Source: Pseudonocardia sp. T1-2H
GTDB taxonomy: Bacteria; Actinomycetota; Actinomycetes; Mycobacteriales; Pseudonocardiaceae
DNA: 64,000 nucleotides
NCBI RefSeq assembly: GCF_038039215.1
Contig: NZ_JBBPCL010000001.1
Span: 1,240,001-1,304,000, forward strand
Reading direction: 5' to 3'
The number at the start of each line of letters is the position of its first letter. The stretch's first letter is position 1. The translations under genes and the position numbers were made by a program. Below are positions 3,374 to 44,598 of this stretch, piece after piece. Under the pieces are notes generated by a model. The model saw only the letters and a list, made by a program, of their open reading frames with translations, did not search any database and had not been told where the DNA came from.

Positions 3374-4915
3374 GTGCGGGACGACAGGTTGCCGGTGCTT
3401 CTCGGCGTGGGCCAGGTGCTCGGCAACCGGGACCGGACGGTGGCCGGCGCGCGGGAGCCGTTGCGGCTCGTCGCGGACGCCGTGTCCGCCGCCGGGCAGG
3501 ACACCGGCGCCGGCACCGGCGGTCGGCTGCTCCGCGAGGTCGACTCGATCGCGGTCTCGCACGTCGCCAGCTGGGGATACGACGACCTGGCGGCGAAGCT
3601 CGCCGAGCGGATCGGCGCGGGCCCGTCCCACACGTTCGCCGCGCCCGTCGGCGGGCAGTGGCCCGTCGCGCTCGTGAACACGGCGGCCGCGCGGATCGCC
3701 GCGGGGGAGTCCCGGGTGGCGCTGGTGGCCGGCGGCGAGGCGTCGGCGTCGATGGCCGTGCTGGCCCGCGCGGGCGTGGACCCGGCCGTCGACCTGGGCT
3801 GGAGCGCCGAGCCCGGCGGCCAGCCCGCCTTCGACCCGGACGACCTCGGGAGCGCGGCCATGCAGCTCGCCGGGCTGGTCCTGCCGACGCGCGTGTACCC
3901 GATGGTCGACGCCGCCCTGACCCACGCGCTGGGGGAGAGCCCGGCGCAGGCCCAGGCCTGGTCCGCGGAGCTGTACGCCGGGCTCAGCAAGGTCGCGTCG
4001 GAGAACCCCTGCGCCTGGAACCCGATGGTCACCTCGCCCTCGGACATCCTGCGCGTCGGGCCCGTCAACCGGATGATCTGCGAGCCCTACCCCCTGGCGC
4101 TCAACGCGAACCCGCTGGTGGACATGGCCGCGGCCGTCGTCGTGACGTCGGTGGCCGTGGCCCGCGAGCACGGCGTCCCGGACGAGCGGATGGTGCACGT
4201 CTGGGGCGGCGCGGGTGCGGAGGACGCCGCGGACGTGGTCGCCCGGCCGGACCTGGCGGTCTCGCCGGCGCTCGGGTCGGCGCTGGACCGGACCCTCGCC
4301 GCGGGCGGCCTCGCCACCGCGGACCTCGACGTCCTGGACGTCTACACGCCGTTCCCGGTGGTCCCGCGGCTCGTCGGGCGGCATCTCGGCCTGGCCCTGC
4401 CGGACCTGCTCGGTGTCACCGGCGGGTACTCCGCCTTCGGCGGCCCGCTGTCGTCGTACGGGCTGCACGCCGTCGTCGCCACCGCGCGCCGGCTGCGGGC
4501 GGGGGCCCGGACCGCGCTGGTGCACGGGGGAGGCGGGTATCTGACCCGGCAGCACGCCGTCCTGCTCGGGCGGTCGGCGCACGAGGACGGCTACGTCGGC
4601 GACCCCGTCCCCAAGGACACCGCCGAACCCGGCCCCGCGCCGGTGGTGCTCGCCGACGGGGACGTCCACGAGGTGCGGGTGGAGGCCGGGACCGTGGAGT
4701 ACGACCGCAACGGCCTCCCCACCCAGGGCTTCCTGCTGGCCCGCACGCCGGACGGCCGCCGCCTCGCCGCCGCGACCCCGCGCGGGGACGCCGCCAGCAC
4801 CGCGGTCCTCACCGTCTTCCCCGACGGCCCCACCGCCCCGCCGGGCCCGCACGCCGTCGGCCGCACCGTCCGCGCCACCGTGATCGCCGGCCACGCCCAG
4901 CTCGACCCCGTCTGA
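3374..4915 (+). CDS. Thiolase-like protein (acetyl-CoA acetyltransferase family, type 1 TLP)
   Basis: 513 residues from GTG at 3374. The body has the thiolase fold signature ([31 protein letters not shown] motifs, then [19 protein letters not shown] and [15 protein letters not shown], where the last carries the His region of thiolases). About 85 C-terminal residues rich in beta-strand ([20 protein letters not shown]) match the additional C-terminal domain of actinobacterial thiolase-like proteins, thought to act on acyl-CoA thioesters in lipid or sterol breakdown; the exact substrate is unknown. The gene stands alone. It is followed at once by a repeat array and then by a convergent gene. The start was chosen because homology begins there (LPVLLGVGQ); the frame is open further upstream into decayed DNA. 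Confidence 0.85.
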
Positions 4916-4921
4916 CGCCCC

Positions 4922-4976
4922 CGCGAGTCGCGATCTGAGACCGCGCGAGTCGCGCCACGGAACCGCGCGAGCCGGG
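4922..4976. repeat. 22-base-period array of CGCGAGTCGCG, copy set A (2 exact + 1 degenerate)
   Basis: Exact copies of the 11-mer CGCGAGTCGCG start at 4922 and 4944, and a degenerate copy (CGCGAGCCGGG) starts at 4966, so the period is exactly 22. The 11-base spacers are similar (ATCTGAGACCG, CCACGGAACCG). The 11-mer is an odd palindrome: CGCGA and TCGCG pair around a central G. The array fills the whole gap between two convergent genes. Confidence 0.85.
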
Positions 4977-4977
4977 C

Positions 4978-5721
4978 TCAGCGGGCGCGCCAGTACCCCG
5001 TCGCGTAGACCGCCCGCCGGCCGAGGCCGCGCTCGTTCAGCAGATGAGCCCGGATGTCCTTCACCGCGGCGGACTCGCCCGCGAGCCAGGCCTGACCCTC
5101 ACCCTCGGGCAAGGTCGCCGCCCGCACGGCCTCGACGAGCGGTTCGCCCGCGGGCCGGTTCCCGCGGTGCACCCAGGTCACGTCGGCCTTGCCCGGCAGG
5201 TCCTGTTCCTCACCGGCGTCCGCCACCTCGAGCAGGGCCAGCGCCGGGACGTCCGGCGGCACCGCCTCCAGCACGGTCGCGACGGCGGGCAGCGCGGACT
5301 CGTCCCCGATCACGACGTGGAACGCCGCGGCGGGATCCGGCACCCAGCGTCCGCCGGGCTCGGAGACCCCGACCCACGACCCGGGCTCCGCGGACTGCGC
5401 CCACGCCGCGGCCGGCCCGTAACCGGTGTGCACCACGAAGTCGACGTCCAGCTCACCGGCCGCGGGGTCGAAGCGGCGGACGGTGTAGGTGCGGATGGTC
5501 GGGCGTGCCTCGCCCGCGGGCCAGACGGGTCCGCCGGTGCTGGCGCGGGGGATGGCCGGCCGGTCCTGTCCCTCGACCGGGAAGAACATCTTGATCCGCC
5601 GGTCCGGGCCCTCCCCGGGGAACCCGGCCAGCTCGTCGCCGCCCAGGGTCACGCGGATCATCCGCGGCGTGATGGTGGTGCTGCGCAGGACCTGCAGCAG
5701 GCGGGGGGCCGTCGTCGTCAC
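4978..5721 (-). CDS. Siderophore-interacting FAD-binding protein (ViuB/YqjH type ferric-siderophore reductase family)
   Basis: 247 residues. The N-terminal FAD-binding beta-barrel holds [11 protein letters not shown] (about residue 88), the R-x-Y-[ST] flavin motif, and [10 protein letters not shown]; a C-terminal NAD(P)-binding half ends in [19 protein letters not shown], typical of the family. Such proteins reduce ferric siderophores in the cytoplasm to release iron. I prefer the GTG at 5721 because CACACT lies exactly six bases before it (5728-5733), a leaderless arrangement seen at other genes here; an in-frame GTG at 5727 would add two residues. The TetR gene just upstream on the same strand starts at 6390 and could be co-transcribed, with a 39-base gap. 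Confidence 0.87.
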
Positions 5722-5766
5722 CGGCACAGTGTGCCTCGTGCGCGAAAACCGTTGCCAGGGCGGCGA

Positions 5767-6390
5767 TTACCGCGCACGGGCGCCGGAGGCGCGGCCCTGC
5801 AGACCGGTCCAGGCGAGGTCCATCAGGTACTCCGTGGCGTCCTCGGTCGTGACGCGATTGTCCTGCGCGCGCCAGACCGCCAGCCGCTCGCACGCGCCGA
5901 CGATGACCTGCGCCCAGCCCTGCAGCTGGAGCGGAGCGGCGTCCGGGGCCGCGGCGCCGAGCAGCGCGGCGATGAAGTCGGTCTGCTGCGCCCGGATCCC
6001 CTCGACCGCGTCCGCGGCGATCCTGGCCTCGGAGTACAGCAGCGAGAAGGCGGCGGCGCGCTCGTCGAGGAACTCGAAGAACGCCCGGGTGCCCCGGCGG
6101 AGCATGTCCTCGGGTGTCGTCGCGGCCGCCGCGGCGGTGGCGGTGACCTCGAGCAGCTCGGTCCGGGCCTGTGCGACGCACGCCAGCAGCAGGCCCTCCT
6201 TGGAGCCGAAGTGCGTGTACAGCACGGGCTTGGTGACCCCGACCCGTTCGGCGACGGCGTCCATCGACGCGTTCGCGTACCCGCGCTCGGAGAACACGGC
6301 GACCGCGGCGTCGAGGATCTGCCGCTCGCGCTCCTCGCGGCCGACGCGGCGGCGTCGAGCGGGGGCGGCCTGGGCGGAGCGGGATTCCAC
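5767..6390 (-). CDS. TetR-family transcriptional regulator
   Basis: 207 residues. The N-terminal helix-turn-helix reads ILDAAVAVFSERGYANAS then MDAVAERVGVTKPVLYTHFG, a textbook TetR DNA-binding domain; the C-terminal half is a helical ligand domain. The GTG at 6390 has TAGGGT ending six bases upstream (6397-6402), which suggests a leaderless message. It is divergent from the monooxygenase gene at 6463, and two palindromic sites lie between them. It most likely represses the monooxygenase and perhaps itself. The inducer is unknown. Confidence 0.9.
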   Translation of the reverse strand: MESRSAQAAPARRRRVGREERERQILDAAVAVFSERGYANASMDAVAERVGVTKPVLYTHFGSKEGLLLACVAQARTELLEVTATAAAAATTPEDMLRRGTRAFFEFLDERAAAFSLLYSEARIAADAVEGIRAQQTDFIAALLGAAAPDAAPLQLQGWAQVIVGACERLAVWRAQDNRVTTEDATEYLMDLAWTGLQGRASGARAR

Positions 6391-6414
6391 GGGGGAACCC
6401 TACCCGGATCCAAC

Positions 6415-6441
6415 TTACTCGTGGTAACTTACTGGCGGTAA
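6415..6441. promoter_or_regulatory. Tandem TTAC-N5-GTAA operator, TetR/monooxygenase intergenic region
   Basis: TTACTCGTGGTAA (6415-6427) and TTACTGGCGGTAA (6429-6441) are two copies of the same palindrome, 14 bases apart, in the 72-base gap between the divergent TetR and monooxygenase genes. They sit just upstream of the GAGGAGG ribosome site (6448-6453) of the monooxygenase. This is the expected place and form of a TetR-family operator. Confidence 0.7.
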
Positions 6442-6462
6442 CCCAACGAGGAGGGACCCGGA

Positions 6463-7941
6463 ATGAGCGAGACGACCCCACGTGTCGATCCCGTCACGGT
6501 GGACACCGTCATCGTCGGCAGCGGCTTCGCCGGCCTCGGCGCGGCGGTGAAGCTGGACGAGGCGGGTCGGAGGGACTTCGTCATCCTGGAGAAGGGCGAC
6601 ACCCTCGGCGGTACCTGGCGGGACAACGTCTACCCGGGCTGCGCCTGCGACGTGGAGTCCCACCTCTACTCCTTCTCCTTCTTCCAGAACCCGGAGTGGA
6701 CGCGGACGTTCGCGCGCCAGCCGGAGATCCGGGCCTACCTCGAGAGCGTCGCGGACCGCTACCGCCTGCGGGACCGCATCCGCTTCGGCGTCAAGGTCGC
6801 CGGCGCCGAGTGGGACGGCACCGCGTGGGACGTCCGCACGGACGACGGCACCAGCTACCGTGCGCGCTACGTGCTGTTCGGCACCGGTGCGCTGCACGAC
6901 CCCTTCGTACCCGAGATCGAGGGCCTGGACCGCTTCGCCGGCAAGGCCTTCCACTCGTCGCAGTGGGACCACTCGCACGACCTCGCGGGCAAGCGCGTCG
7001 CCGTCATCGGCACGGGGGCCAGCGCGATCCAGTTCGTGCCCGCGATCGCCCCGGACGTCGAGTCGCTGACGCTCTTCCAGCGCACCGCGCCGTGGGTGCT
7101 GCCCAAGCCGGACCGCGCGATCCCGGAGCGCACCCGCGCCGCGTACCGGCGCCTGCCGCTGCTGCAGACGCTGAACCGGATCGCCCTGTACTGGCGGCAC
7201 GAGGCGTTGGTCGCGGGCTTCCTGCACCCGCGGATCATGAAGCTGGTCCAGGGCCTCGGGCTGAAGTACCTGGACAAGGTCTTCGCCGGCGACGACGAGC
7301 TCAAGCGCAAGGTCACGCCCACGTTCACCATGGGCTGCAAGCGGGTCCTGATGAGCAACGACTACTACCCGGCGCTGCGGCGGGACAACGTCTCCGTCGA
7401 GACCGGGGACATCACCCGGATCACCGAGCGGGGCGTCGTCACCGCGGACGGGGTCGAGCACGAGGTCGACACGATCATCTTCGGGACCGGGTTCAAGGTC
7501 GCGGACGGCATGGCGCAGATGGGCGTCACCGGGCGGGACGGCGTCAAGCTCGTCGACGCGTGGAAGGACGGCTCGGAGGCCCTGCTCGGCACCACGGTCG
7601 CGGGCTTCCCGAACCTGTTCACGATCGTCGGCCCGAACACCGGGCTCGGCCACAGTTCGATGGTGTTCATGGTCGAGTCGCAGGTGAACTACATCCTCGA
7701 CGCGATGCGGACGGTCGACGCCAACCACGCCGTCGCCATCGACACCCGGCAGGACAGTCAGGACGCCTACAACGCGGACCTGCAGCGCCGGCTCGGCAAG
7801 GCGGTGTGGAGCACGGGCGGCTGCGCGAGCTGGTACCTCGACGAGAACGGCCGTAACCGGACCCTGTGGCCCGGCTACACGTTCACCTTCCGCCGCCGGA
7901 CGAAGGCGATCGACCCCGCCCACCACGAGCTCATCGCCTGA
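6463..7941 (+). CDS. Flavin-containing Baeyer-Villiger-type monooxygenase
   Basis: 492 residues. GSGFAGLG at about 19-26 binds FAD, GTGASA at about 183-188 binds NADPH, and between them FAGKAFHSSQWD (158-169) is the type I Baeyer-Villiger fingerprint F-x-G-x3-H-x3-W-[P/D]. Such enzymes insert oxygen next to a ketone or oxidise soft heteroatoms, using NADPH and O2 in the cytoplasm; the substrate cannot be read from sequence. GAGGAGG sits about eight bases before the ATG at 6463. The divergent TetR gene and the tandem palindromes suggest substrate-induced control. Confidence 0.9.
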   Translation: MSETTPRVDPVTVDTVIVGSGFAGLGAAVKLDEAGRRDFVILEKGDTLGGTWRDNVYPGCACDVESHLYSFSFFQNPEWTRTFARQPEIRAYLESVADRYRLRDRIRFGVKVAGAEWDGTAWDVRTDDGTSYRARYVLFGTGALHDPFVPEIEGLDRFAGKAFHSSQWDHSHDLAGKRVAVIGTGASAIQFVPAIAPDVESLTLFQRTAPWVLPKPDRAIPERTRAAYRRLPLLQTLNRIALYWRHEALVAGFLHPRIMKLVQGLGLKYLDKVFAGDDELKRKVTPTFTMGCKRVLMSNDYYPALRRDNVSVETGDITRITERGVVTADGVEHEVDTIIFGTGFKVADGMAQMGVTGRDGVKLVDAWKDGSEALLGTTVAGFPNLFTIVGPNTGLGHSSMVFMVESQVNYILDAMRTVDANHAVAIDTRQDSQDAYNADLQRRLGKAVWSTGGCASWYLDENGRNRTLWPGYTFTFRRRTKAIDPAHHELIA

Positions 7942-7985
7942 GCGCAGCCGAGGAGCGGACATCGAGACTGAGTAGCGTCGGCCGG

Positions 7986-8948
7986 GTGGAAGATCCCTTC
8001 GTCTACTCGATCCCGATGACCACCCGGTTCCGCGGCATCGCGGTCCGGGAGGGCCTGCTGCTGCGCGGCCCGGCGGGCTGGGGCGAGTTCTGTCCCTTCA
8101 CCGAGTACGACGACGCGGAGGCCGCCTCCTGGCTCGCCGCCGCCCGCGAGGCCGCGGACGACGGCTGGCCGGAACCGGTGCGCGACCGTGTCCCGGTCAA
8201 CTGCATCGTCCCGGCGGTCGGTCCGGAGCGGGCGCACGCGCTCGTCCGCGCGTCCGGCTGCTCGACGGCGAAGGTGAAGGTGGCCGACCACCCGGAGTCC
8301 GCTGCCGAGGACCTGGCCCGGGTCGAGGCCGTCCGGGACGCGCTCGGGCCGTCGGGCGCGGTGCGGGTCGACGCCAACGCCCGCTGGGAGGTCGACGAGG
8401 CCGTGGCCGCGATCCGCGCGCTGGACCGCGCGGCGGGCGGGCTGCAGTACGTCGAGCAGCCGTGCCCGTCCATCGAGGAGCTGGCGCTGGTCCGCCGCCG
8501 CGTCGACGTGCCGATCGCCGCCGACGAGTCCATCCGCCGCGCCGAGGACCCGTTGAAGGTCGCGGTGGCCGGCGCCGCGGACGTCGCGATCCTGAAGGTC
8601 GCGCCGCTCGGCGGGGTCCGGCGGGCCCTCGACGTCGCGGAGGCCTGCGGGCTGCCGTGCGTCGTCTCGTCCGCGCTGGAGACGAGCGTCGGGATGGCCG
8701 CGGAGATCGCCCTCGCCGCCGCACTGCCGCGGCTCGACCACGCCTGCGGGCTGGGGACGGGCGCGCTGCTGACCGCGGACGTCGTCGCCCCGGACGCCCG
8801 GCTGACCCCGCGGGACGGGTTCCTGCCCGTGCTGCGACGCGCCCCGGAACCCGTCGCGCGGCAGGGCGTCGCTGCCGATCCCGAGCGCACGACCTGGTGG
8901 CGGGACCGGCTAGAACGGGTGCAGCTCCGCGCGCGCCGCTACCCTTGA
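7986..8948 (+). CDS. menC: o-Succinylbenzoate synthase (menaquinone biosynthesis)
   Basis: 320 residues of the enolase superfamily. It has the KVK motif (96-98), the metal ligands in VDANARW (Asp129), YVEQP (Glu157) and AADES (Asp180), and the second lysine in AILKVAPLGG (Lys204), a pattern typical of actinobacterial MenC. It dehydrates SHCHC to o-succinylbenzoate in menaquinone synthesis. The GTG at 7986 has TAGCGT (7973-7978) seven bases upstream, so it is probably leaderless. No other men gene is in the window. A related dipeptide epimerase or muconate cycloisomerase is a less likely alternative. Confidence 0.88.
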   Translation: MEDPFVYSIPMTTRFRGIAVREGLLLRGPAGWGEFCPFTEYDDAEAASWLAAAREAADDGWPEPVRDRVPVNCIVPAVGPERAHALVRASGCSTAKVKVADHPESAAEDLARVEAVRDALGPSGAVRVDANARWEVDEAVAAIRALDRAAGGLQYVEQPCPSIEELALVRRRVDVPIAADESIRRAEDPLKVAVAGAADVAILKVAPLGGVRRALDVAEACGLPCVVSSALETSVGMAAEIALAAALPRLDHACGLGTGALLTADVVAPDARLTPRDGFLPVLRRAPEPVARQGVAADPERTTWWRDRLERVQLRARRYP

Positions 8949-8954
8949 CCGATC

Positions 8955-9893
8955 ATGTCCGTGGTCGTGGTGGGAGCCGGACTGGCCGGCGTCGCGTGTG
9001 CGCGGGAGGTCGCCGACGCCGGGATCCCCGTGCGCGTCCTGGACCGCGGCCGCGCCCCCGGCGGCCGGATGGCGAGCCGCTGTCACGACGGTCGGCCGAT
9101 CGACACCGGTGCCGCCTACTTCACCGTGCGGGACCCCGGGTTCGCCGAGGTCGTGGCGACCTGGCGGACGGCCGGCCTGGCCCGGCCCTGGACCTCCGAG
9201 CTCGCGGTCCTCGACCACGGGGAGCGGCGCCGGGCGCCCGGGCCGATGCGCTGGGCCGCGCCGCGGGGCCTGTGCAGCCTGGTCGCCGCGCTCGCGGAGG
9301 GGCTCCCGCTGGAGCTGGAGCGTGAGGTGGAGCGGGTCACCGCGGGCCCGACGGTCGACGGGGAACCGGCCGACGTCGTGGTGCTCGCGATGCCGGACCC
9401 ACAGGCCCTGCGCGTCCTCGATCCCCGGCTCGACGCCGTCGCGCTCGCCTCGGGGCGGCCCTGGCGGCCCGTCCTGGCCGTCGCCGCCGAGTACGCCGAT
9501 CGCACCTGGGACGAGCTGCCCGCTGCGTTCGTCAACGACCACCCGGTGCTCTCCCTGATCGCGGACGACGGCGCGCGCCGCGGCGACGACGCCCCCGTGC
9601 TGGTGGCGCACACCGTCTCCGACGTCGCCCGGCGGTTCGACGAGCAGCCGGAGAAGGCGGTCCCGCTCGTCGTCGAGGCGGTGGGGGAGCTGCTCGGGAT
9701 CACCGCACGGCCGGTGTGGACGCACGCCCACCGCTGGCGCTTCGCGTCCCCCGAGCAGGACCGCGACGTGCCCTTCCACCTCGGCGCGGACGGCATCGGG
9801 CTGGCCGGGGACGGCTGGGGCAGCTCCCGGATCGAGACGGCCTGGCGCTCGGGCTCCCTGCTGGGGCGCGAGGTCGTCCGCCGGCTCGGATGA
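8955..9893 (+). CDS. Renalase-like NAD(P)/FAD-dependent oxidoreductase
   Basis: 312 residues. The N terminus MSVVVVGAGLAGVACAREV is a dinucleotide-binding loop, followed by the GG-doublet GRAPGGRMASR, as in flavin amine oxidases and renalase. The C terminus LAGDGWGSSRIETAWRSGS is the flavin-ring-binding end of that family. The protein is shorter than monoamine oxidases and matches the bacterial renalase-like group; its substrate is not known. It starts six bases after menC, and TACCCT overlaps the menC end nine bases before the ATG, so it may have its own leaderless start as well as read-through. Confidence 0.85.
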   Translation: MSVVVVGAGLAGVACAREVADAGIPVRVLDRGRAPGGRMASRCHDGRPIDTGAAYFTVRDPGFAEVVATWRTAGLARPWTSELAVLDHGERRRAPGPMRWAAPRGLCSLVAALAEGLPLELEREVERVTAGPTVDGEPADVVVLAMPDPQALRVLDPRLDAVALASGRPWRPVLAVAAEYADRTWDELPAAFVNDHPVLSLIADDGARRGDDAPVLVAHTVSDVARRFDEQPEKAVPLVVEAVGELLGITARPVWTHAHRWRFASPEQDRDVPFHLGADGIGLAGDGWGSSRIETAWRSGSLLGREVVRRLG

Positions 9894-9926
9894 CCGGAAC
9901 CGGTCCAGCGGGTTAACGTCACCGTC

Positions 9927-11432
9927 ATGGTGGAGCCCGCAACCGTCGGAGGCCTCTCCGACGCCCTCACGCCGGCCGACGCCGACGACCGGCCCTTCGG
10001 TGTCGCGGACTCCGGCGACGCTTTCGCGATGGCGGTCCTCGACGACGCCGGCCGTGCGGTCCTCGCCGAGCTGGCCACCGCGCTGCCCGCGGATCGCGTG
10101 CTCACGGACCCGGACACCGTCCGCCCCTACGTGCACGACGAGGCGGAGTGGGCCGAGCACGGCGCGCCGATCGCCGTCGTCCGGCCGCGCAGCACCGCCG
10201 AGGTCGCGGCCGTCGTGAAAGCCTGCGCGCGGCACCGGGTGGCCGTCGTGCCGCGGGGCGCGGGTACCGGGCTGTCCGGGGGCGCCAACGCCGTCGACGG
10301 CTGTGTGGTCCTGTCCCTGGAACGGATGCGGGACATCGTGGAGATCGATCCGGGCGAGCGGCTCGCCGTCGTCCAGCCCGGGGTCGTGAACGACGACCTG
10401 CGCGCCGCCTGTGCCGAGCAGGGCCTCTGGTACCCGCCGGACCCGGCGAGCGCCCCCTGGTCGACGATCGGCGGCAACGTCGCGACGAACGCCGGCGGCC
10501 TGTGCTGCGTGAAGTACGGCGTGACGGGGGACTACGTACTCGCGCTCGAGGTCGTCACAGCGGCGGGGGAGGTCGTCCGGGTCGGGCGGCGGACCGCGAA
10601 GGGCGTCGCCGGCTACGACCTCGCCGGGCTGTTGGTCGGGTCCGAGGGCACGCTCGCCGTGATCACCGAGATCACCGTGAAGCTGCGGCCGTCGCGCACG
10701 GCGCCGCCGCGTACCGTCGTCGGGTTCTTCGACACCCTCGCCGACTGCGGGGCCGCGGTCGCCGCCGTGACCGCGGCGGGCCTGCAGCCGGCGGCGTTGG
10801 AGCTGATCGACCGGCACTGCCTGCACGCCGTCAACGAGTGGCGCCACGCAGGGCTGCCCGAGGACGCCGCCGCACTGCTCCTCGCGCAGACGGACCTGGC
10901 CGAGCCCGCGGCGGGCGCCGAGGCCGAGGCGATCGCGTCCGCGTTCGAGGCGAACGGCGCCCGGGACGTGATGGTCTCGACGGACCCGGTGGAGGCCGAG
11001 GCCCTGTTCGACGCCCGCCGCCTCGCCTACCCGGCGCTGGAGCAGCGTGGGGACGCGGTGCTCACCGAGGACGTCTGCCTGCCGCGCGGCAGGCTCGCCG
11101 AGATGCTCGCCCGGATCGACGTCATCGCGGACCGGCACGGCACGTTCGTCGCCACCATCGCGCACGCGGGCGATGGCAACCTGCACCCGTTGATCATCGT
11201 CCCGCACGGCGACGCCGAGGCGCGGACCCGCGCGCAGGCCGCGTTCGACGACATCGTCTCGGCGGCGATCGAGCTGGGTGGCACGGTCACCGGCGAGCAC
11301 GGCGTCGGCCTGCTGAAACGCGACGGCATGCGCCGCGAGCTGGACCCGGGCTCGCTGGCGATGCAGCGGGCGATCAAGGCGGCCCTCGACCCCGACGACA
11401 TCCTCAACCCCGGCAAGGTGATCGGCCAGTGA
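9927..11432 (+). CDS. FAD-linked oxidase, GlcD / D-2-hydroxyacid dehydrogenase family
   Basis: 501 residues. The PCMH FAD-binding domain contains PRGAGTGLSGGANAV and GNVATNAGGLCCVKYGVTGD; the C-terminal domain has HAGDGNLHPLI and GEHGVGLLK, the flavin-facing motifs of GlcD and bacterial D-lactate dehydrogenases. It should oxidise a D-2-hydroxyacid (glycolate, lactate or similar) at FAD. TAACGT (9914-9919) lies exactly seven bases before the ATG at 9927, supporting a leaderless start there; the family body begins near an in-frame ATG at 10029, so the first 34 residues are an extension. Its stop overlaps the malonyl-CoA synthetase start by four bases. Confidence 0.87.
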   Translation: MVEPATVGGLSDALTPADADDRPFGVADSGDAFAMAVLDDAGRAVLAELATALPADRVLTDPDTVRPYVHDEAEWAEHGAPIAVVRPRSTAEVAAVVKACARHRVAVVPRGAGTGLSGGANAVDGCVVLSLERMRDIVEIDPGERLAVVQPGVVNDDLRAACAEQGLWYPPDPASAPWSTIGGNVATNAGGLCCVKYGVTGDYVLALEVVTAAGEVVRVGRRTAKGVAGYDLAGLLVGSEGTLAVITEITVKLRPSRTAPPRTVVGFFDTLADCGAAVAAVTAAGLQPAALELIDRHCLHAVNEWRHAGLPEDAAALLLAQTDLAEPAAGAEAEAIASAFEANGARDVMVSTDPVEAEALFDARRLAYPALEQRGDAVLTEDVCLPRGRLAEMLARIDVIADRHGTFVATIAHAGDGNLHPLIIVPHGDAEARTRAQAAFDDIVSAAIELGGTVTGEHGVGLLKRDGMRRELDPGSLAMQRAIKAALDPDDILNPGKVIGQ

Positions 11433-12859
11433 ACACGCTCCTCCCCGCATTCGACGACCCGACCGACAAGCTCGCGCTCCGGTTCCCGGACGGCGAGCTG
11501 ACCTACGCCGAGCTGGCCGGCGTCGCCTCGGACCTCGCCACCCGGCTCGCGGGACACGGGCGCGTCGCGGTGTGGGCGACGTCCACCCTCGGCGCCGCGG
11601 TCGGCATCACCGCCGGGCTGCTCGCCGGGGTGCCGGTCGTGCCGGTGAACCCGAAGGTGGGGGAGCGGGAGCTGGCGCACGTCGTGTCGGACTCGGCGCC
11701 CGAGCTGATCATGGCGGTCCCCGACGTCACGCTCCCGGAGGCGCTGGCCGGGCTGCCGCGCGTCGACGTCGTCACCGACCCGGCCGGGGTGACGCCCGCC
11801 GAGCTGCCGGCCGAGCCCGGGCCCGAGGCGCCCGCACTCGTCGTCTACACGTCGGGGACCACGGGGCCGCCGAAGGGCGCCGTGCTCTCCCGGGGCGCGA
11901 TCGCCGCCAACCTCGACGGGCTCGCCGAGGCCTGGGCCTGGACCGGCGACGACGTCCTCACCCACGCCTTGCCGATCTTCCACGTGCACGGGCTGGTGCT
12001 CGGCACCGTCGGCCCGCTGCGCCGCGGCGGCAGCCTGCACCATCTCGGCGCGATCGACGGCCAGGTCCTCGCGGCGGCGGTCGACGGCGGCGCGACGCTC
12101 GTCTTCGGCGTCCCCACGCACTACCACCGGCTCGCCGCGGACCTCGAGGCCGACGCCGCGCTGGCCGCGTCCGTGGGCCGCGCCCGGCTGCTGGTCTCCG
12201 GGTCGGCTGCGCTCACCGCCGTCGACCACTCGCGGATCGAGAAGGCGACCGGGCTGGGGGTCCGGGAGCGCTACGGGCTCACCGAGACGCTGATCGTCAC
12301 CGCCGCGCGGGCGGACGAGCCCGCGGAGGTGGGGGCGGTCGGGCGTCCGGTGCCCGGGACCGAGGTGCGGCTCGCGCCCCTGCCCGAGGCCGAGGGCGAC
12401 GACGAGGGACTCGGCTCCGTGGAGGTCCGTGGCCCGAGCCTGTTCTCCGGCTACCTCAATCTGCCCGAGGCCAGCGTGGCCTCGCAGACCGCCGACGGCT
12501 GGTTCGCCACCGGGGACATCGCCCGCTGGACGCCGTCCGGCGCGCTCGCGATCGTCGGCCGCAAGGCCACGGACCTGATCAAGTCCGGCGGGTACAAGAT
12601 CGGCGCGGGCGAGATCGAGAACGCGTTGCTGGAGCACCCGGACGTCGCGGAGACCGCGGTCATCGGCGTCCCGGACGACGACCTGGGCCAGCGGATCGTC
12701 GCGTTCGTGGTGCCCGTGGGCGACGCCCCGGAGCCCAAGGTGCTCATCGACCACGTCGCGAGCCTGATCGCCCCGCACAAGCGGCCGCGCGAGATCCGGT
12801 ACGTGGAGTCGCTGCCGCGCAACGCGATGGGCAAGGTGCAGAAGAAGCTACTCTCCTGA
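11429..12859 (+). CDS. matB: Malonyl-CoA synthetase (MatB-like acyl-CoA ligase)
   Basis: 476 residues from a GTG that overlaps the preceding TGA. ANL-family motifs are clear: YTSGTTGPPKGAVLSRGAIA (ATP grip), RYGLTETL, then TGDIARW, and GRKATDLIKSGGYKIGAGEI near the C terminus with the A10 lysine in LPRNAMGKVQKK. The protein follows Streptomyces MatB closely in layout (RVAVWATSTLGAAVGITAGL, PLFHVHGLVLGTVGPLRRGG-like segment), so malonate or methylmalonate plus CoA to the thioester is the likely reaction. No malonyl-CoA decarboxylase lies nearby; the partner is the upstream FAD oxidase, which is translationally coupled. A repeat array follows the stop directly. Confidence 0.85.
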   Translation: MNTLLPAFDDPTDKLALRFPDGELTYAELAGVASDLATRLAGHGRVAVWATSTLGAAVGITAGLLAGVPVVPVNPKVGERELAHVVSDSAPELIMAVPDVTLPEALAGLPRVDVVTDPAGVTPAELPAEPGPEAPALVVYTSGTTGPPKGAVLSRGAIAANLDGLAEAWAWTGDDVLTHALPIFHVHGLVLGTVGPLRRGGSLHHLGAIDGQVLAAAVDGGATLVFGVPTHYHRLAADLEADAALAASVGRARLLVSGSAALTAVDHSRIEKATGLGVRERYGLTETLIVTAARADEPAEVGAVGRPVPGTEVRLAPLPEAEGDDEGLGSVEVRGPSLFSGYLNLPEASVASQTADGWFATGDIARWTPSGALAIVGRKATDLIKSGGYKIGAGEIENALLEHPDVAETAVIGVPDDDLGQRIVAFVVPVGDAPEPKVLIDHVASLIAPHKRPREIRYVESLPRNAMGKVQKKLLS

Positions 12860-12865
12860 ACCCCG

Positions 12866-12964
12866 CGCGAGTCGCGCTCCAGAACCCCGCGAGTCGCGCT
12901 CTCGAACCCCGCGAGTCGGGGTGTGAGACCGCGCGAGTCGCGCTCCGGGATCGCGCGAGTCGCG
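12866..12964. repeat. 22-base-period array of CGCGAGTCGCG, copy set B (4 exact + 1 near-exact)
   Basis: CGCGAGTCGCG starts at 12866, 12888, 12932 and 12954, with a one-mismatch copy (CGCGAGTCGGG) at 12910, so all five are exactly 22 bases apart. The 11-base spacers share a GAACCC/GAGACCG-like end. The array begins seven bases after the malonyl-CoA synthetase stop and ends about 70 bases before the CYTH/CHAD gene. It uses the same unit and period as the array at 4922-4976. Confidence 0.9.
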
Positions 12965-13032: not shown

Positions 13033-14596
13033 ATGAGCCGCCGCGACCCCACGACCCGGACCACCACCGACCCGGCCGAGACCCACGTCGGCACCACCTA
13101 CCGCGGTCCCGCCGCCGCCGGTGCACCCCGTCTCGCCGATCTCGAAGGGGTGCGTCCGGGCCGGGCGTCCGCGGGCGAGGTGCGCGAGACCGAGCGCTAC
13201 GACACGGCCGACCTCCGGCTGGCGACACAGGGCATCGTGCTCGCCGTGTACCGCGAGAACGACGCCGAGTACTGGCGTCTCGACCTCCCGGACGCGGGCG
13301 AGGGCGAGCGGCTGCAGGTACCCGTCACGCCGTCGGAGGTGGAGGGCGTCGACCCGGAGCTCCCCGCCGAGCTCGACGAGCTGGTGCGCGGCGCCCGCCG
13401 CGGTGCGGAGGTGCGGCCCGTCGGCCGCATCCGGCGCGTGCGGACGCGTACCCCCCTGCGCGCCGCCCGCCGCCCGGTCGGTGAGCTGATCCGCGACGAG
13501 GTGCAGGTGGCGACCCTCGGCTCCTCGACGACCGTGGAGAACTGGTCCGAGACGGAGGTCAGGCTGACCCTCTCCGCGCCCGCCGGCCTCGCCGAGAAGC
13601 TCACCGCCCGCCTCGCCGAGACCGGGATGGAGCCGGCACCCTCCGGCGCCGACGCCGAGCTCGACCGGCTGCTCCGCGTCGGGGCTCCGGCCGCTCCCCG
13701 TCGCCGTCTCGACAAGAAGGGCTCCGCCGGAGCCGTCGTCCTCGGCTACGTCGCCGAGCACGTCGACGCGCTGGCCGACGCCGACCTCCTCGCCCGCCGC
13801 GGCGACGACGAGGGCGTGCACCAGATGCGCGTGGCCGCCCGCCGCCTGCGCAGCGCCCTGCAGAACTTCCCGACGGTGCTGGACCGGGAGCGCACCCGCC
13901 CGCTCGTCGACGAGCTGCGCCACCTCGGTCAGCAGCTCGCCCCGGCGCGGGACCTGAAGGTCGTCGAGGAGCGGATCACCGCCGCCGTCGCGGAGACCGA
14001 CGACGCGCTCGTGCTGGGGCCGGTGCGGGCCCGCGTCACCAAGCACTTCGCCCGGCCCCGGGAGGAGGCGCGCGCCGCCGTCCTCACCGAGCTCGACGGC
14101 GAGCGCTACGCCGCGTTGCGGAGCGCGCTCGAGCGGTTGTTGCAGGACCCGCCGCTGACCGGGGCCGCCGCACGTCCGGCGCGCAAGGAACTGCCGGTCC
14201 TGGAGAAGAAGGCGCAGCGGCGCTTCGACAAGCGGCTCGACGCCGCGCTCGACACACTCACGACCGGGGACGCCGAAGCCGGCGACACCGCCGTCCACGA
14301 GGCCCGCAAGGCCGGCAAGCGGCTGCGCTACGCCGCCGAGGTCACCCGGGCGCCCGGCATGAAGCTCGGCAGGAAGGACCGGAAGAAGGCGAAGGCCCAC
14401 GCGAAGCAGCTGAAGTCCGTCCACCAGGCGCTCGGTGAGCACCAGGACACGGTGGTCTCCCGCCGCACGCTCCGGGAAGCTCGGCGCGGCCGCGCACGCC
14501 GCGGGGGAGAACGGCTTCACCTTCGGCCTCCTGCACGGCCGGGACCAGGCCATCGCGGAGCGTATCGAGGAGACCCTGCCGCAGATGCGCTCCTGA
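13033..14596 (+). CDS. CYTH-CHAD domain protein (apparent frameshift near the 3' end)
   Basis: The N-terminal half is a CYTH-like triphosphate tunnel domain (ERYDTADLRLATQGIVLAVY, a strand pattern rich in E and R). The C-terminal half is a CHAD domain with conserved histidines (DDEGVHQMRVAARRLRSAL and DTAVHEARKAGKRLRYAAEV), linked to polyphosphate binding. Read as given, the frame runs to 14670 with a nonsense tail. Removing one A at 14477-14478 restores the CHAD ending, ELGAAAHAAGENGFTFGLLH and so on, stopping at TGA 14594-14596, before the next gene. I therefore place the end at 14596 and regard the indel as a probable sequence error. Confidence 0.8.
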
Positions 14597-14653
14597 TGCG
14601 TCCCGCCACTCGAGCAGCGGCGGAGATCGCCCGCCGATGGCACGATCACACCC

Positions 14654-15667
14654 GTGAGCGATCCCCGTGACCCGGTGGCCGACCTCCGCCGCATCGCGTT
14701 CCTGCTCGAACGCGCGCACGAGTCGACCTACCGGGTCCGCGCCTTCCGCACCGCCGCCGCGGCCCTGCGCGGCAAGGACCCGGACGAGCTCGCGGCGCTG
14801 GCCCGGTCCGGGGAGCTGGTCAAGCTCAAGGGCGTCGGCGAGGTGACGGCCCGGTGTGTGGCCGAGTCCCTGACCGGCGAGGAGCCGGTGTACCTGCGCC
14901 GGTTGGAGGCCACCGACGGCGTCGAGCGCGTCCAGGCCGCGATCGACCTCCGGGACACGATCAAGGGCGACTGTCACAGCCACACCGACGCGTCCGACGG
15001 CGGGTCGCCGCTGTGGGAGATGGTCGAGACGGCGATCGGCCTGGGGCACGACTACCTCGTGATCACCGACCATTCGCCGCGGCTCACGGTCGCGAACGGC
15101 CTCTCCGCCGAGCGCCTGAGGAAGCAGATCGAGCAGATCGCCGAGATCAACGCGGGGCTGCGCGGCTTCCGGATCCTCACCGGCATCGAGGTCGACATCC
15201 TCGACGACGGCGCCCTCGACCAGCAGGAGGACCTGCTCGCCGAGCTCGACGTCGTGGTCGCCAGCGTGCACTCCAAGCTCCGCATGCCCCGCGCGGAGAT
15301 GACCGAACGGATGCTCACCGCCGTCGCGAACCCGCATGTCGACGTCCTGGGGCACTGCACCGGGCGGATGGTCACCGGCAACCGCAAGCGCCCGGAGTCG
15401 GACTTCGACGCGGAGGCCGTGTTCGCCGCCTGCGCGGAGTACGGCACGGCGGTGGAGATCAACTCGCGGCCGGAGCGGCTGGACCCGCCGAAGCGCCTGC
15501 TCCGCCTGGCCGTCGAGGCGGGCTGCGAGTTCACGATCGACACGGACGCCCACGCGCCCGGTCAGCTCGACTGGCTGGACAACGGCTGCTCCCGCGCGGT
15601 CCTCTGCGGCGTCCCGACCGAGCGGGTCCGCAACACCCGGGACGCCGAGGCCCTCCTCGCCCGATGA
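14654..15667 (+). CDS. PHP-domain metal-dependent phosphoesterase (PolX-like, with helix-hairpin-helix)
   Basis: 337 residues. The N-terminal 90 or so residues resemble the helical and HhH part of DNA polymerase X (YRVRAFRTAAAAL, then LKGVGEVTARCVAESL). The rest is a PHP domain with metal-binding histidines in GDCHSHTDASDGG, VITDHSPR, ASVHSKLR, DVLGHCTGR and the final DTDAHAP. There is no nucleotidyl-transferase palm, so it is not a complete PolX; a DNA- or nucleotide-directed phosphatase is the usual reading. The GTG at 14654 begins the conserved part, and CACGAT ends seven bases upstream. Confidence 0.85.
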   Translation: MSDPRDPVADLRRIAFLLERAHESTYRVRAFRTAAAALRGKDPDELAALARSGELVKLKGVGEVTARCVAESLTGEEPVYLRRLEATDGVERVQAAIDLRDTIKGDCHSHTDASDGGSPLWEMVETAIGLGHDYLVITDHSPRLTVANGLSAERLRKQIEQIAEINAGLRGFRILTGIEVDILDDGALDQQEDLLAELDVVVASVHSKLRMPRAEMTERMLTAVANPHVDVLGHCTGRMVTGNRKRPESDFDAEAVFAACAEYGTAVEINSRPERLDPPKRLLRLAVEAGCEFTIDTDAHAPGQLDWLDNGCSRAVLCGVPTERVRNTRDAEALLAR

Positions 15668-40665: not shown

Positions 40666-43600
40666 GTGGCGACCACGGGTATTCGGAGCGAGGCGGGCGA
40701 CGAGTTCTCGGGAGGTGCTCTCCTCCCCGTCGCCGCCTCGTTGCGCTGGAGCCGACCGGACCTCACGGCCGGGATCGCCGAGCACGTGGCCCAGCGGTCC
40801 CTGGCCAAAGGGGACCGGCCGCTGTGGCTCGCCGCCTCCGGGTGGTACGTCCACGGCCGGTCCGCGACCGGTGACGGGCGTGAGGCCGCTGCGGACGTCG
40901 TGGACCGGTTGCGGACCATGGCCCGGCGCGGAGCGCTGATCACGTCCGACGGCGTCCGGCTCTGCGTCGAGCTCGCCGGGCTCGCCCAGGAGAACGGCGA
41001 CGTGGCGGACGCCCGCGCGCTCGCCTCCGTCGCGCTGGAGGCGGCGGACGGTTCCGCCGAGCTGGAACTGGACGCGCTCGTCGTGCTCGTCCGGTGTGCG
41101 CTGGCGGACGAGGCGAAGGGCGTCGACGAGCTGCTCGCGCGGGCACGCACGGCCTCGATGCGGTTGCCCGGCCAGGGGCCTGCAGCGGTGTACGCGCTGG
41201 TCATGGCCGCGGTTCAGCGGGCGGCCGGCAGATGCGACGACGCCGTCTCGGCGGCCGTCGACGGCCTTCGGCAGCTCGGCGTGCTGCCCTCCGAAGAGGC
41301 CACCGTCGCCCTGTGCGGGCACCTGGCCGACGCCCTCGGCGCCCAGTGGATCGGCACCCTGCTCGATCACGACCGCGTCCACGAGGCGCGGGCCGCCGCG
41401 GAGTCGATCAGCGGGGCCCGGACCGGTGGCCTGCCCAGCCGGCAGGCGGTCCAGCTGCGGCTCTCGATCGCTCGGGCCACGGCCGGAGACGTCGATTCCA
41501 CACGGCGGGGGCTGGCTGAGGCGGCGGAAATGGCGGCGGCCGCGAACACGCCGTCGCTGGTGTCCGCATGCCGGACCGCGCTCGCCGGGCTCGAGGAGCA
41601 GGCCGCCAACGTCGAGGCTGCGCTCGCGTCCATGCGCGCGGGCGTCGCGGCCGAACGCACGGACCAGGAACGAGGACGCCGCTTCCGGGCGCTGCTCACC
41701 ACCCTGGGCGCACCGGACTCCTGGGAGGCCGCTCCGAGCCGTCGGGAACCGCAGCGGGACCAGGTGGAGGCGACGCGGACGGGCGGACGGCGCCGCGCCG
41801 CGTCCGGTGACGATGAGCGACGGCTCGTGGCCGTGCCGGCGGCCGACGGAGCCTTGCCCGGAAATCGGGAAGAGACGCCCGCGCCCGCTCGGACGTCGAC
41901 CCCTGCGTCGGATCCGGTGGCCGCCGAGGTCCCGGCTCGCCCCCCGCGCCGCCGCCGTGCGGCTCCGCAGCCCGGCGCCGAGGGGGAGGCGCGCGACGTG
42001 CTGCGCGAGCTGCTGAAGGGCTCGCCGCTCGGGGACGCTCTCGCGGCCGAGCTCCGAGCCGACGGCCTCCTGGCGCACGACGGACTGACGAACGGTCACC
42101 ACGTGAACGGTGACCTGGCCGGCCAGGAGCGGGCGAACGACGGCCCGTCGCGCAACGGCTCCGCGGAAGGTGCCGCTGAGGTCAGCGGTACACGGGGTGG
42201 CGACGCGCCGAAGAATGGTGTCGAGGGCGCCCGGACCGAGGGCGCCCGGACCGAGGGCGCCCGGACCCCTGGCGGCGGCAGCCGCAGCGGCGCGACCGCC
42301 GGCACCGGCAGCGATGGCCTCCGCGTACCGAGCGAGGACGCGAGAGACTCCGAGACTCAGAGCGAGGCCCCCGCGGACATCCGAACCGGTCGCCGTCGGA
42401 GGTCCGCGTCGGTGTCCGACGGCTCCGAGCGCAACGGTCACCGTGCGACCGGGACACCCGGACGGGGTGCGGCAACGGTCGACGACAGCGCCACGGAGGC
42501 GAGCTCGTCCGTCCCGGCGGAGGGTGCGAGCGACTGGCTGCGCGCGGCCATCGCCGAACTCGATCGCGTATGGGGGTCGCCCGCGGGCTCGGACAGCGTG
42601 ACCCCGGGCCGTGCCGCGCCGGACACAGCGGCTCAGGACCCCCCAGGCCGGGCTCGCATGGCTGTCGAGCCGACGGACCAGGACGCAACAGCGCCCGCGG
42701 CCCGTCATTCGTCGGGTCCGGACACCGACCGACATGTGGACGCCGAGCAGACCTCCGACGAGATCCCGGTCGCGAAGGGCGGGCGGGCAACGCGTCACGC
42801 CACCTCGGGCGCCCGTGCCACGGGCGAGCACCTGACCAGCTCGGATGACGCACGTGGTGCTGCTGGTTCTGCCGCCCGGCACGGCTCCCGCGGCGCGGCC
42901 GACACGAACGACGAGGTCGACGACCGCGAGCCGGACGGCCGTGGCACAGGTGCCGGCGAGCAGTTCACCCGGTCGGCCTTCGGCAGTTCGGTCGTCGTCG
43001 ACCTCGTCCGGGGCGACGAGCGGATGACCACCCGGCCTGCGCAGGAAGCGCTGCGGGGACTGACCGAACGGATCCGGGAGCACCTGCCCGTCCACGCGGG
43101 CGTGCGGGACGACGGGCCGGACGAACTGGTCGTCGTGCTTCCCGGACACGGCCGGGCCGCGACCGCGGCGTGGTTGCACCCTGTGCTGCGCGAGCTCGCG
43201 GACCACCTCGACCCGGCCCACGGCCTGGCGGGGGCGCGGTTGCGGGGCAGCGTCCACGGCACGGACGGCCGCGCCGGCGTGCAGCTCATCCAGGACATCG
43301 TGGCCTCCGCCGAGCCCGCGCGACGGCGGCACCCCACCGCGGACGACTCCGACGGGCTCAGGGACGGTGGCCTCACGGACGGTGGCCTCACGGACAGCGG
43401 GCTCAGGGACGGCGACCTCGCGGACGGCGGCCTCCGGGACGGTGGGCCGTCGGACAGCGGCGCGGTGGACGGCAGCCAGGCGGACGAGCAGGGCCGGACG
43501 AGCGAGGACACCCGGGCCGAGGGCGACGATGCGCGGCGCACCCCTGGTCGGCGGGCCAGACGCCGGGCGGCTGCGGGCGATCCGCTCGGGCCGGCGAGCT

Positions 43601-44598
43601 ACGTGCTCGGCGAGTTCTCGGGCTCCGCGGCGGAGGAGGAGAGCGGGCCGCTGCTCGGTGACCTTCTCTACCGGGAAGCGAGCGGAGCCGTCGCGGAGAC
43701 ATCGGTCCCTGGGCCCTCCGGCTCAGCCACGGACATCGGTGACACGTCGGGACGAGCGGGCGCGGGCCGCCGGCGCCGCGACGAGACGGCCGACGGGGAG
43801 CGGTCGGAGGGTCTCGCGTCGCGCAACGGGCGCCACGACGGCGACGAGCCGAGCGGCCGGCGTGCCCGCAGGGAGACTGCCGGCCACGGACCGGCGTCTG
43901 CTGAGCGCGAGGGTTCCGACGCCGAAGGCACGCCGGCCGAGAACTCCACACGGTCCGTGACTCTCCGTGCATCCGGGTCGCGTCGCCGTCGCGCGGACGA
44001 CAGCTCGTTCCACATCTCGGATCTGGAGATCCGGCCCGGCAGCGGAGGGCGGCGGCACCGCGACGACGAGGAGAGCGTCGAGTCCGGGCGTCCGCGACGT
44101 GGGGCGGACGTGGCCGACCCGACGGATGCACCGACACCGATTCGCGGTTCCCGGCAGCCCGCGGAGGACGGCGCCGAGGGCGGTCGCCGGCGCCGCCGGT
44201 CGCGGGACGTCTCCGCGGACACAGTGGACGGCGCCGACCTCCCGGCGGACGGCCCGCGCCCCGGAGACGACGGCGCTCGGAACGGCGAGGAGACCGGCCG
44301 GGCGGCTGCCGGCCGGGAGGACGCCGGCCGGGCGGACGCGATCCCGGCTGAGGGGAGCCGGGCAGACACGAACCGGCCAGACCGGAGCCGAACGGACCCG
44401 AGCCGGACGGACGAGAGCAGCCCGGCCCAGGCCAGCACCGACCGGGACGACACCGACCGGGACGACACGGACGACGACCCCGCCAGCAAGCGCCCCGGCA
44501 AAACGCCCGCCACCTCGGACGACCCCACCGATTTCGGGGAGAATCTCGGCCTCGGTGACCTGCTCGCCGGAGCCCTGGCCGCCTACCGGGGGCTCTGA
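40666..44598 (+). CDS. Very large, mostly disordered protein of unknown function
   Basis: 1310 residues from GTG 40666, which has GGGAGG (40653-40658) seven bases upstream; an open frame from 40600 lacks such a site. About 350 N-terminal residues are alanine-rich and helical, TPR-like (ARALASVALEAADGSAELEL, AAVYALVMAAVQRAAGRCDD). Then come long low-complexity runs rich in R, D, G, S, E. At about 770-890 is a folded island (SSVVVDLVRGDERMTTRPA to GVQLIQDIV) whose DGPDELVVVLPGHGRAATA recalls a GGDEF-type half with a degraded active site. Short pentapeptide repeats follow, then more disorder, and a conserved-looking end (FGENLGLGDLLAGALAAYR). It lies between ettA and glutamate dehydrogenase. No function can be assigned. 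Confidence 0.8.
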   Translation: MATTGIRSEAGDEFSGGALLPVAASLRWSRPDLTAGIAEHVAQRSLAKGDRPLWLAASGWYVHGRSATGDGREAAADVVDRLRTMARRGALITSDGVRLCVELAGLAQENGDVADARALASVALEAADGSAELELDALVVLVRCALADEAKGVDELLARARTASMRLPGQGPAAVYALVMAAVQRAAGRCDDAVSAAVDGLRQLGVLPSEEATVALCGHLADALGAQWIGTLLDHDRVHEARAAAESISGARTGGLPSRQAVQLRLSIARATAGDVDSTRRGLAEAAEMAAAANTPSLVSACRTALAGLEEQAANVEAALASMRAGVAAERTDQERGRRFRALLTTLGAPDSWEAAPSRREPQRDQVEATRTGGRRRAASGDDERRLVAVPAADGALPGNREETPAPARTSTPASDPVAAEVPARPPRRRRAAPQPGAEGEARDVLRELLKGSPLGDALAAELRADGLLAHDGLTNGHHVNGDLAGQERANDGPSRNGSAEGAAEVSGTRGGDAPKNGVEGARTEGARTEGARTPGGGSRSGATAGTGSDGLRVPSEDARDSETQSEAPADIRTGRRRRSASVSDGSERNGHRATGTPGRGAATVDDSATEASSSVPAEGASDWLRAAIAELDRVWGSPAGSDSVTPGRAAPDTAAQDPPGRARMAVEPTDQDATAPAARHSSGPDTDRHVDAEQTSDEIPVAKGGRATRHATSGARATGEHLTSSDDARGAAGSAARHGSRGAADTNDEVDDREPDGRGTGAGEQFTRSAFGSSVVVDLVRGDERMTTRPAQEALRGLTERIREHLPVHAGVRDDGPDELVVVLPGHGRAATAAWLHPVLRELADHLDPAHGLAGARLRGSVHGTDGRAGVQLIQDIVASAEPARRRHPTADDSDGLRDGGLTDGGLTDSGLRDGDLADGGLRDGGPSDSGAVDGSQADEQGRTSEDTRAEGDDARRTPGRRARRRAAAGDPLGPASYVLGEFSGSAAEEESGPLLGDLLYREASGAVAETSVPGPSGSATDIGDTSGRAGAGRRRRDETADGERSEGLASRNGRHDGDEPSGRRARRETAGHGPASAEREGSDAEGTPAENSTRSVTLRASGSRRRRADDSSFHISDLEIRPGSGGRRHRDDEESVESGRPRRGADVADPTDAPTPIRGSRQPAEDGAEGGRRRRRSRDVSADTVDGADLPADGPRPGDDGARNGEETGRAAAGREDAGRADAIPAEGSRADTNRPDRSRTDPSRTDESSPAQASTDRDDTDRDDTDDDPASKRPGKTPATSDDPTDFGENLGLGDLLAGALAAYRGL
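43354..43473 (+). repeat. Eight tandem 15-base (pentapeptide) repeats
   Basis: Encodes GLRDG-GLTDG-GLTDS-GLRDG then DLADG-GLRDG-GPSDS-GAVDG inside the large disordered protein. A second short set (EGART, three times) lies at about 42229-42260. Likely slippage-prone. Confidence 0.75.

What the first reader, a model, noticed from the sequence alone, without database searches (positions are those of the whole stretch)
4922..12964. Two intergenic arrays of CGCGAGTCGCG at an exact 22-base period
Seen directly: copies start at 4922, 4944, (4966) and at 12866, 12888, (12910), 12932, 12954, where brackets mark degenerate copies. The 11-mer is an odd palindrome with a central G and the spacers are 11 bases, so dyads fall on the same DNA face about every two helical turns. 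Both arrays start 6-7 bases after a stop codon and are never inside genes. Possible roles: a protein-binding array, a bidirectional transcription stop, or a mobile repeat element. I do not know a named family that matches. It is not CRISPR: unit and spacer are too short and the spacers are similar.
Basis: seen in the sequence. Interest (0 to 1): 0.72.

Follow-up and report, generated by a model that had tools for sequence, protein, structure and literature searches.

The report
Self-renewing 22-base repeats after genes
The two odd repeat clusters belong to a large tandem-repeat family, apparently unnamed, that sits just behind the ends of genes in many Pseudonocardia and some related bacteria, with one unit nearly always every 22 bases while the letters between keep changing, which leaves a simple and testable question open: what holds the spacing and copies the units?

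Summary
CGCGAGTCGCG recurs at exactly 22 bases in both places; 56 exact pairs lie in the whole genome, none of the reversed pattern. By its relatives the genome is a Pseudonocardia (inferred). The wider signature is GCGAGTC at a 22-base period with a species-specific remainder. Its triple form GCGAGT-N16 is in 41 of 62 genomes of the genus and 29 of 328 others of the family, 12 of 45 genera. Of 64 intergenic arrays examined here none lies between divergent genes, about 18 expected; many start within 15 bases of a stop codon. Positions persist in near relatives (15 of 23, 17 of 24), less in a farther one (3 of 21), while unit number and spacers change and spacers stay alike within a genome. No Y1/RAYT transposase was found in this genome. 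Array RNA folds no better than other gene ends. Best reading: a RAYT-free repeat family, re-copied within each genome, whose rigid period points to phased protein binding on DNA. No such protein is known; a neutral or selfish repeat is nearly as likely.

The parts
4922..4976 (+). Array 1: three 22-base units (cores at 4922, 4944, degenerate 4966) between two convergent genes
12866..12964 (+). Array 2: five 22-base units (cores at 12866, 12888, 12910 with one mismatch, 12932, 12954) between two co-directional genes; the orthologous place has 22-spaced cores in G026 and G055 and a single core in G031
   Evidence: TRF reports period 22, 5.1 copies
3407..4915 (+). Upstream gene of array 1 (weak thiolase-like matches; start uncertain)
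4978..5727 (-). Convergent neighbour of array 1 (siderophore-interacting FAD protein)
11429..12859 (+). Upstream gene of array 2 (AMP-binding enzyme)
13033..14670 (+). Downstream gene of array 2 (CHAD domain protein)

Best explanation
An intergenic repeat family of the Pseudonocardiaceae: tandem arrays of a 22-base unit (GCGAGTC plus a species-specific remainder) that live downstream of stop codons. SHOWN: the strict period, the 3'-end niche, the absence from divergent regions in this genome, the retention of positions between close relatives, the change of unit number and spacer there, and the likeness of spacers within one genome. INFERRED: units are multiplied and homogenised by recombination or slippage between arrays, not by a REP transposase; and the period is held because each unit is a binding site for a chromosomal DNA-binding protein that lines up on one face of the helix about every two turns and marks or insulates the ends of transcription units. 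No such protein is identified.
For: Period: 213 of 222 neighbouring intergenic cores 14-32 bases apart are at exactly 22, while neighbouring spacers differ at 562 of 2198 sites; in the same 824 kb TRF gives 58 of 83 intergenic rows of at least 2.5 copies at period 22 and 6 at 44, against 2 of 83 coding rows at 22. Arrays with other cores also use 22 (GCGAGTTTGCC, GCGAGTTGT, GATTCAGTCACT). Niche: 39 tandem, 25 convergent, 0 divergent of 64 intergenic arrays, while 31,411 of 114,523 intergenic bases are divergent; in tandem regions the median distance is 28 bases to the upstream stop and 110 to the next start. Concerted evolution: spacer identity 0.75 within arrays, 0.62 between arrays of one genome, 0.46 between genomes; 0 of 300 label shuffles reach the observed value, 173 arrays of 11 genomes. 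Position, for 26 of this genome's longest arrays: 22-spaced cores at 15 of 23 orthologous gene ends in G026, 17 of 24 in G055, 3 of 21 in G031, against 15 of 560 gene ends in stretches of four array-bearing relatives. Sense array behind ileS in 12 of 22 array-bearing relatives with a readable end, 0 of 4 with no CGAGTCG pairs (the script counted 23, but the contig of G052 ends at the gene).
Against: No binding protein was found or tested. A copied unit carries its length along, so a constant period need not mean binding: 9 off-length spacings compare with perhaps 17-34 expected from the indel-to-substitution ratio of the flanks (14 to 233, coding included, my estimate), a modest deficit. The genus and family searches looked only for period 22. 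Orientation is not fixed: within 15 bases of a stop 73 sense and 34 anti over all genomes. Divergent arrays do exist elsewhere, 11 of 308. Two turns of 10.5 bases make 21, not 22 (recalled).
Confidence: 0.42

Rival explanations
1. Neutral or selfish tandem repeat: units spread by slippage and ectopic recombination and have no function; they pile up behind stop codons because elsewhere they would damage promoters or proteins.
For: Concerted evolution and fast turnover; positions fade with distance, 3 of 21 in G031; 21 of 62 genus genomes have no GCGAGT triple; G017 and G027, with no CGAGTCG pair, still carry complete ileS and glmM matches. Hugged stop codons show no preference for TGA: 76 of 107 over all genomes against 592 of 740 in this genome.
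Against: Does not by itself explain starts within 3-15 bases of the stop, the sense excess there (73 to 34), the recurrence behind ileS, or one period for different cores.
Confidence: 0.36
2. RNA-level transcription terminator: neighbouring or inverted palindromes fold into hairpins that stop transcription, in both directions between convergent genes.
For: 3'-end niche; close [-][+] array pairs with a GC-rich centre look able to form long stems (read by eye); behind ileS 4 of 9 array-less relatives with room have a very strong hairpin (z -6.5 to -9.5) where 12 others have an array; in sliding windows 15 of 55 arrays reach z -3 or lower.
Against: Three-unit stretches fold close to shuffles: mean z -0.51 in this genome (first 14 runs, 3 below -2) against -1.31 for 40 core-free gene ends (13 below -2); other genomes vary, and a few single runs fall below -2. 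Arrays are not more folded than other gene ends in the window test either: mean -2.34 for 55 arrays, -1.54 for 15 array-less orthologues (p 0.13), -2.07 for 60 core-free ends of this genome (p 0.12), so the ileS contrast does not generalise. Units without the palindrome form arrays too.
Confidence: 0.15
3. A transcript-level loading site for Rho or another RNA-binding protein.
For: Arrays start right after stops, more often in sense, and three-unit stretches are little structured.
Against: The transcript strand is not C-rich: skew above 0 in 60 of 107 stop-hugging arrays; sense arrays are G-rich in several genomes, and some genomes are mostly reversed.
Confidence: 0.05
4. REP/BIME elements moved by a RAYT (Y1) transposase.
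For: Short extragenic repeats in high copy, inverted pairs, species-specific sequence; two of the five genomes with Y1_Tnp carry arrays (G020 53 pairs, G022 108).
Against: Y1_Tnp is found in 5 of 62 genomes of the genus and not in this one; the other three of the five have 12, 3 and 0 pairs. Genomes with 290 or more pairs, such as G018, G016 and G025, have no match.
Confidence: 0.02

Closest known systems
REP / BIME / REPIN elements (PMC2817692: abstract; PMC3116915: abstract and its section on tandem REPs)
   Same: Short extragenic repeats, high copy, often inverted pairs, sometimes in tandem arrays; species-specific and fast changing; binding sites for proteins in some species.
   Different: No RAYT found in this genome; 22-base unit with a rigid tandem period; the palindrome is not kept across species. 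Terminal tags were not tested.
GTAG/CGTC-tagged palindromic repeats (PMC3733652: passages)
   Same: Lie close to genes and can supply stop codons; some are reiterated in tandem.
   Different: Stem-loops with a terminal tag; Pseudonocardia, Amycolatopsis, Saccharopolyspora and Actinosynnema are not named in the main text held.
TAACTGA heptamer direct repeats of Beggiatoaceae (PMC4679880: abstract and passages)
   Same: Short core repeated in intergenic sets over a genome; function unknown, protein binding suggested.
   Different: A 7-base direct repeat, mostly just upstream of start codons in the main genome.
MIRU / VNTR loci of mycobacteria (recalled, not read)
   Same: Intergenic tandem repeats of variable copy number in a related group, near gene ends.
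   Different: Units of roughly 50-100 bases (recalled); here 22 bases, and no preference for TGA stops.

Membership tests
REP/BIME with RAYT | Cognate Y1 tyrosine transposase in genomes with the repeat | tested here: not met
   PF01797 in 5 of 62 genus genomes, none in the window's genome; 5 of 14 control genomes ring
REP/BIME with RAYT | High-copy extragenic repeats | tested here: met
   258 CGAGTCG pairs at 22 bases in this genome; 64 of 69 arrays examined lie outside predicted ORFs
REP/BIME with RAYT | Conserved imperfect palindrome able to form a stem-loop | tested here: not met
   Species-weighted over 33 groups, position +4 is C 0.52 and G 0.48 although -4 is G 0.98; units GCGAGTCCCCC and GCGAGTCGTACC elsewhere; folding like other gene ends
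CRISPR | Repeats of 24-48 bases with non-repetitive spacers, and cas genes | tested here: not met
   Whole unit 22 bases, spacers 0.75 alike within arrays; cas genes were not searched
Intrinsic terminator | Transcript hairpin more stable than expected and than other gene ends | tested here: not met
   Mean z -0.51 against -1.31 for core-free gene ends; no significant difference in the window test
Known structured RNA (Rfam) | Match at gathering score | tested here: not met
   Four loci, 80,000 bases: only TPP and glycine riboswitches; the window was not in the answered call
Phased DNA-binding array | Constant spacing while spacer letters vary | tested here: met
   213 of 222 spacings at 22 with 562 of 2198 spacer sites different between neighbours
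Phased DNA-binding array | A protein that binds it | not testable with these tools
   No experiment possible; no candidate gene was found, and none was searched for as a binder

The most novel reading that the evidence does not exclude
Most of the genus and parts of up to a dozen other genera of the family share an undescribed repeat system in which a fast-evolving DNA-binding factor and its phased 22-base sites co-evolve, the sites being re-copied through the genome by an unknown, transposase-free mechanism and acting as non-hairpin boundaries at the ends of transcription units.
Probability: 0.22. Interest if true: 0.82.

Novelty: new variant of a known kind. Interest (0 to 1): 0.62.

Why it matters
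It is a genome-wide repeat whose exact period persists while its letters are rewritten, seen in 70 of 390 genomes of its family, a family known for antibiotic producers (recalled). No description of it appeared in the listings of the searches made here (of, 15 of 62 papers and, 10 of 495 were listed). It would make two questions testable: how bacteria homogenise dispersed repeats without a known transposase, and whether GC-rich actinomycetes mark gene ends with bound DNA rather than RNA hairpins.

Tried and rejected
Chance or local duplication: rejected by whole-genome counts. REP with RAYT: not supported. A mobile element with a body between inverted arrays: inner sequences of pairs more than 150 bases apart gave only two short weak matches, 57 and 42 bases at 75-79%. 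Strict orientation with transcription: the table of exact 11-mers suggested it; the wider count did not bear it out (tandem 88 sense, 55 anti). C-rich Rho loading: not supported. TGA-specific insertion: not supported. Array and hairpin as alternatives: seen behind ileS, not in the wider test. Rfam: nothing at arrays in four loci. Papers: searches gave relatives in kind only; the three papers are on human and fly genes by their titles, and I did not open them.

Error corrected: searches placed some stop codons wrongly (the query's own stop sign was aligned), so that G026 seemed to lack the ileS array; one search repeats both tables with this mended. My note carries the old error.

Limits: genes were called by a small script of mine, not a standard caller. 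The genome stretches were chosen around copies. In some searches I used 26 of 30 gene ends made, those with the most units; 3, 2 and 5 of the 26 were dropped for G026, G055 and G031 for want of a match or of length, among them ileS in G031, which does have an array. One search counts 22-spaced CGAGTC or GACTCG; a lone such 6-mer is common (29 of 198 gene ends in G009, 37 of 201 in array-free G017), so 'at least one core' (21 of 23, 21 of 24, 10 of 21) says little. Of the background stretches, G004's ileS and glmM regions and G017's ileS region were chosen on purpose, the others at round positions. Searches used only runs or loci that met their filters (in one search, ends with a lone core or a gap under 55 bases were left out). 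The split of orientation by genome group (68 to 15, and 5 to 19 for CNS-004, CNS-139, G022, G049) was made. Some family genomes have only 1-5 hits, and in G704 the reversed control (42) exceeds the pattern (26).

Full report
What is there. In the whole genome, 7.0 Mb in three contigs, the exact pair CGCGAGTCGCG-N11-CGCGAGTCGCG occurs 56 times and its mirror pattern never; the single 11-mer occurs 145 times against 30. Of 120 named stretches with the same pair (80 printed, the rest seen) most are Pseudonocardia; four are Saccharothrix and one Amycolatopsis, and a few are drafts filed elsewhere. That the window's genome is a Pseudonocardia is inferred from this and from its genus-mates.

The real signature. 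The shorter core CGAGTCG at 22 bases gives 258 pairs in this genome and at least one in 43 of 62 genomes of the genus; 36 of the 62 have 12 or more, while the mirror control reaches 3 at most. GCGAGT three times at 22 bases is met in 41 of 62 genus genomes and in 70 of 390 family genomes, 13 of 46 genera, the 62 included. In an order-wide draw 6 of 397 genomes match, one of them outside the family with a single hit. With one vote per genome, 21 genomes of seven other genera give a unit near GCGAGTC-S-N-A-C-G-T-T-C-N-G-G-N-C-S-C; its first six letters were fixed by the search and those after the seventh are weaker. The palindrome CGCGAGTCGCG is thus one form of the unit, not its essence. Some genomes hold 22-base arrays with other cores, and some have almost none: 200 kb of G017 gave no intergenic period-22 repeat and G027 one, while G004, without CGAGTCG pairs, has GCGAGTCTCCC arrays.

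Period. Of 634 same-orientation core distances up to 140 bases in the 824 kb held, 589 are multiples of 22. Of neighbouring intergenic cores 14-32 bases apart, 213 of 222 are at 22, while neighbouring spacers differ at 562 of 2198 sites.

Place. Of 69 arrays of two or more cores in these stretches 39 lie between co-directional genes, 25 between convergent ones, 5 inside predicted ORFs and none between divergent genes, where about 18 of 64 would be expected by length. Over all loci held at that time 11 of 308 arrays were divergent, 30 lay at locus edges and 21 inside ORFs. Of 316 arrays with an upstream gene end, 107 start within 15 bases of the stop, 73 in sense and 34 anti. The anti cases concentrate in CNS-004, CNS-139 and G022; with these and G049 set apart after the fact, the counts are 68 to 15 and 5 to 19. 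In the CNS-004 and CNS-139 loci that I printed, two arrays often stand back to back around a GC-rich centre.

History. I compared 26 of this genome's array-bearing gene ends, those with the most units, with three relatives. In G026, whose flanks are 91-99% identical, 15 of 23 orthologous ends have 22-spaced cores; in G055 17 of 24; in G031 3 of 21. In stretches of four array-bearing relatives the background is 4 of 198, 4 of 90, 4 of 96 and 3 of 176 gene ends, and 0 of 406 in G017 and G027. At the same places unit number changes, for instance from 11 to 2 or 10 to 3 cores within 400 bases, and the spacer type is often another. The 3' end of ileS has a sense array in 12 of 22 array-bearing relatives with a readable end and in 0 of 4 without CGAGTCG pairs; glmM in 4 of 23 and 0 of 4. 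Spacers are most alike within an array (0.75), then within a genome (0.62), then between genomes (0.46), and 0 of 300 shuffles of genome labels reach the observed mean. So the places are semi-stable and the contents are rewritten in concert.

Mechanism. A Y1 transposase was not found in this genome and is rare in the genus. Inverted arrays enclose no common body, only two short weak matches. Three-unit array RNA folds close to shuffles and less than core-free gene ends; in sliding windows arrays (55, mean z -2.34) are not significantly different from array-less orthologues (15, -1.54, p 0.13) or from core-free ends (60, -2.07, p 0.12). Behind ileS, 4 of 9 array-less relatives with room have strong hairpins, which would suit a terminator role, but the wider test did not bear it out. 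A rigid period with free letters is what phased binding on DNA would need; copying alone would also give it in part. I therefore hold a phased, protein-bound repeat spread by recombination only slightly above a functionless one.

Known kinds. REP/BIME elements are nearest in niche and abundance (PMC2817692, abstract; PMC3116915, abstract and the section on tandem REPs), but the defining enzyme and the conserved stem-loop fail here. TAACTGA repeats (PMC4679880, abstract and passages) are similar in being unexplained intergenic direct repeats. None of the listings showed a description of 22-base arrays in this family; the library lacks most subscription papers.

Noticed in passing
G349, G493, G498, G502, G587, G704: The mirror control pattern TGAGCG at 22 bases is met 6 to 46 times in these family members, so yet another core seems to use the same period.
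   Followed up: no
L080, L096, L174: Array-bearing contigs filed under Pseudomonadota, Microbacteriaceae and Phycisphaerales draft genomes; perhaps misbinned contigs of this family.
   Followed up: no
L267 (G009), just after ileS: Arrays of GGCGAGTTTGCC at 22 bases in both orientations that, unlike the other ileS arrays, fold strongly (z -4.25).
   Followed up: partly
L059:11876-11988 and L042:6012-6114: TPP and glycine riboswitches in stretches that also hold arrays.
   Followed up: no
window 42222-44472: Several 15-base-period repeats close together.
   Followed up: no
L256 (G025) after ileS: Very stable hairpin (z -9.46) where several relatives have an array.
   Followed up: partly
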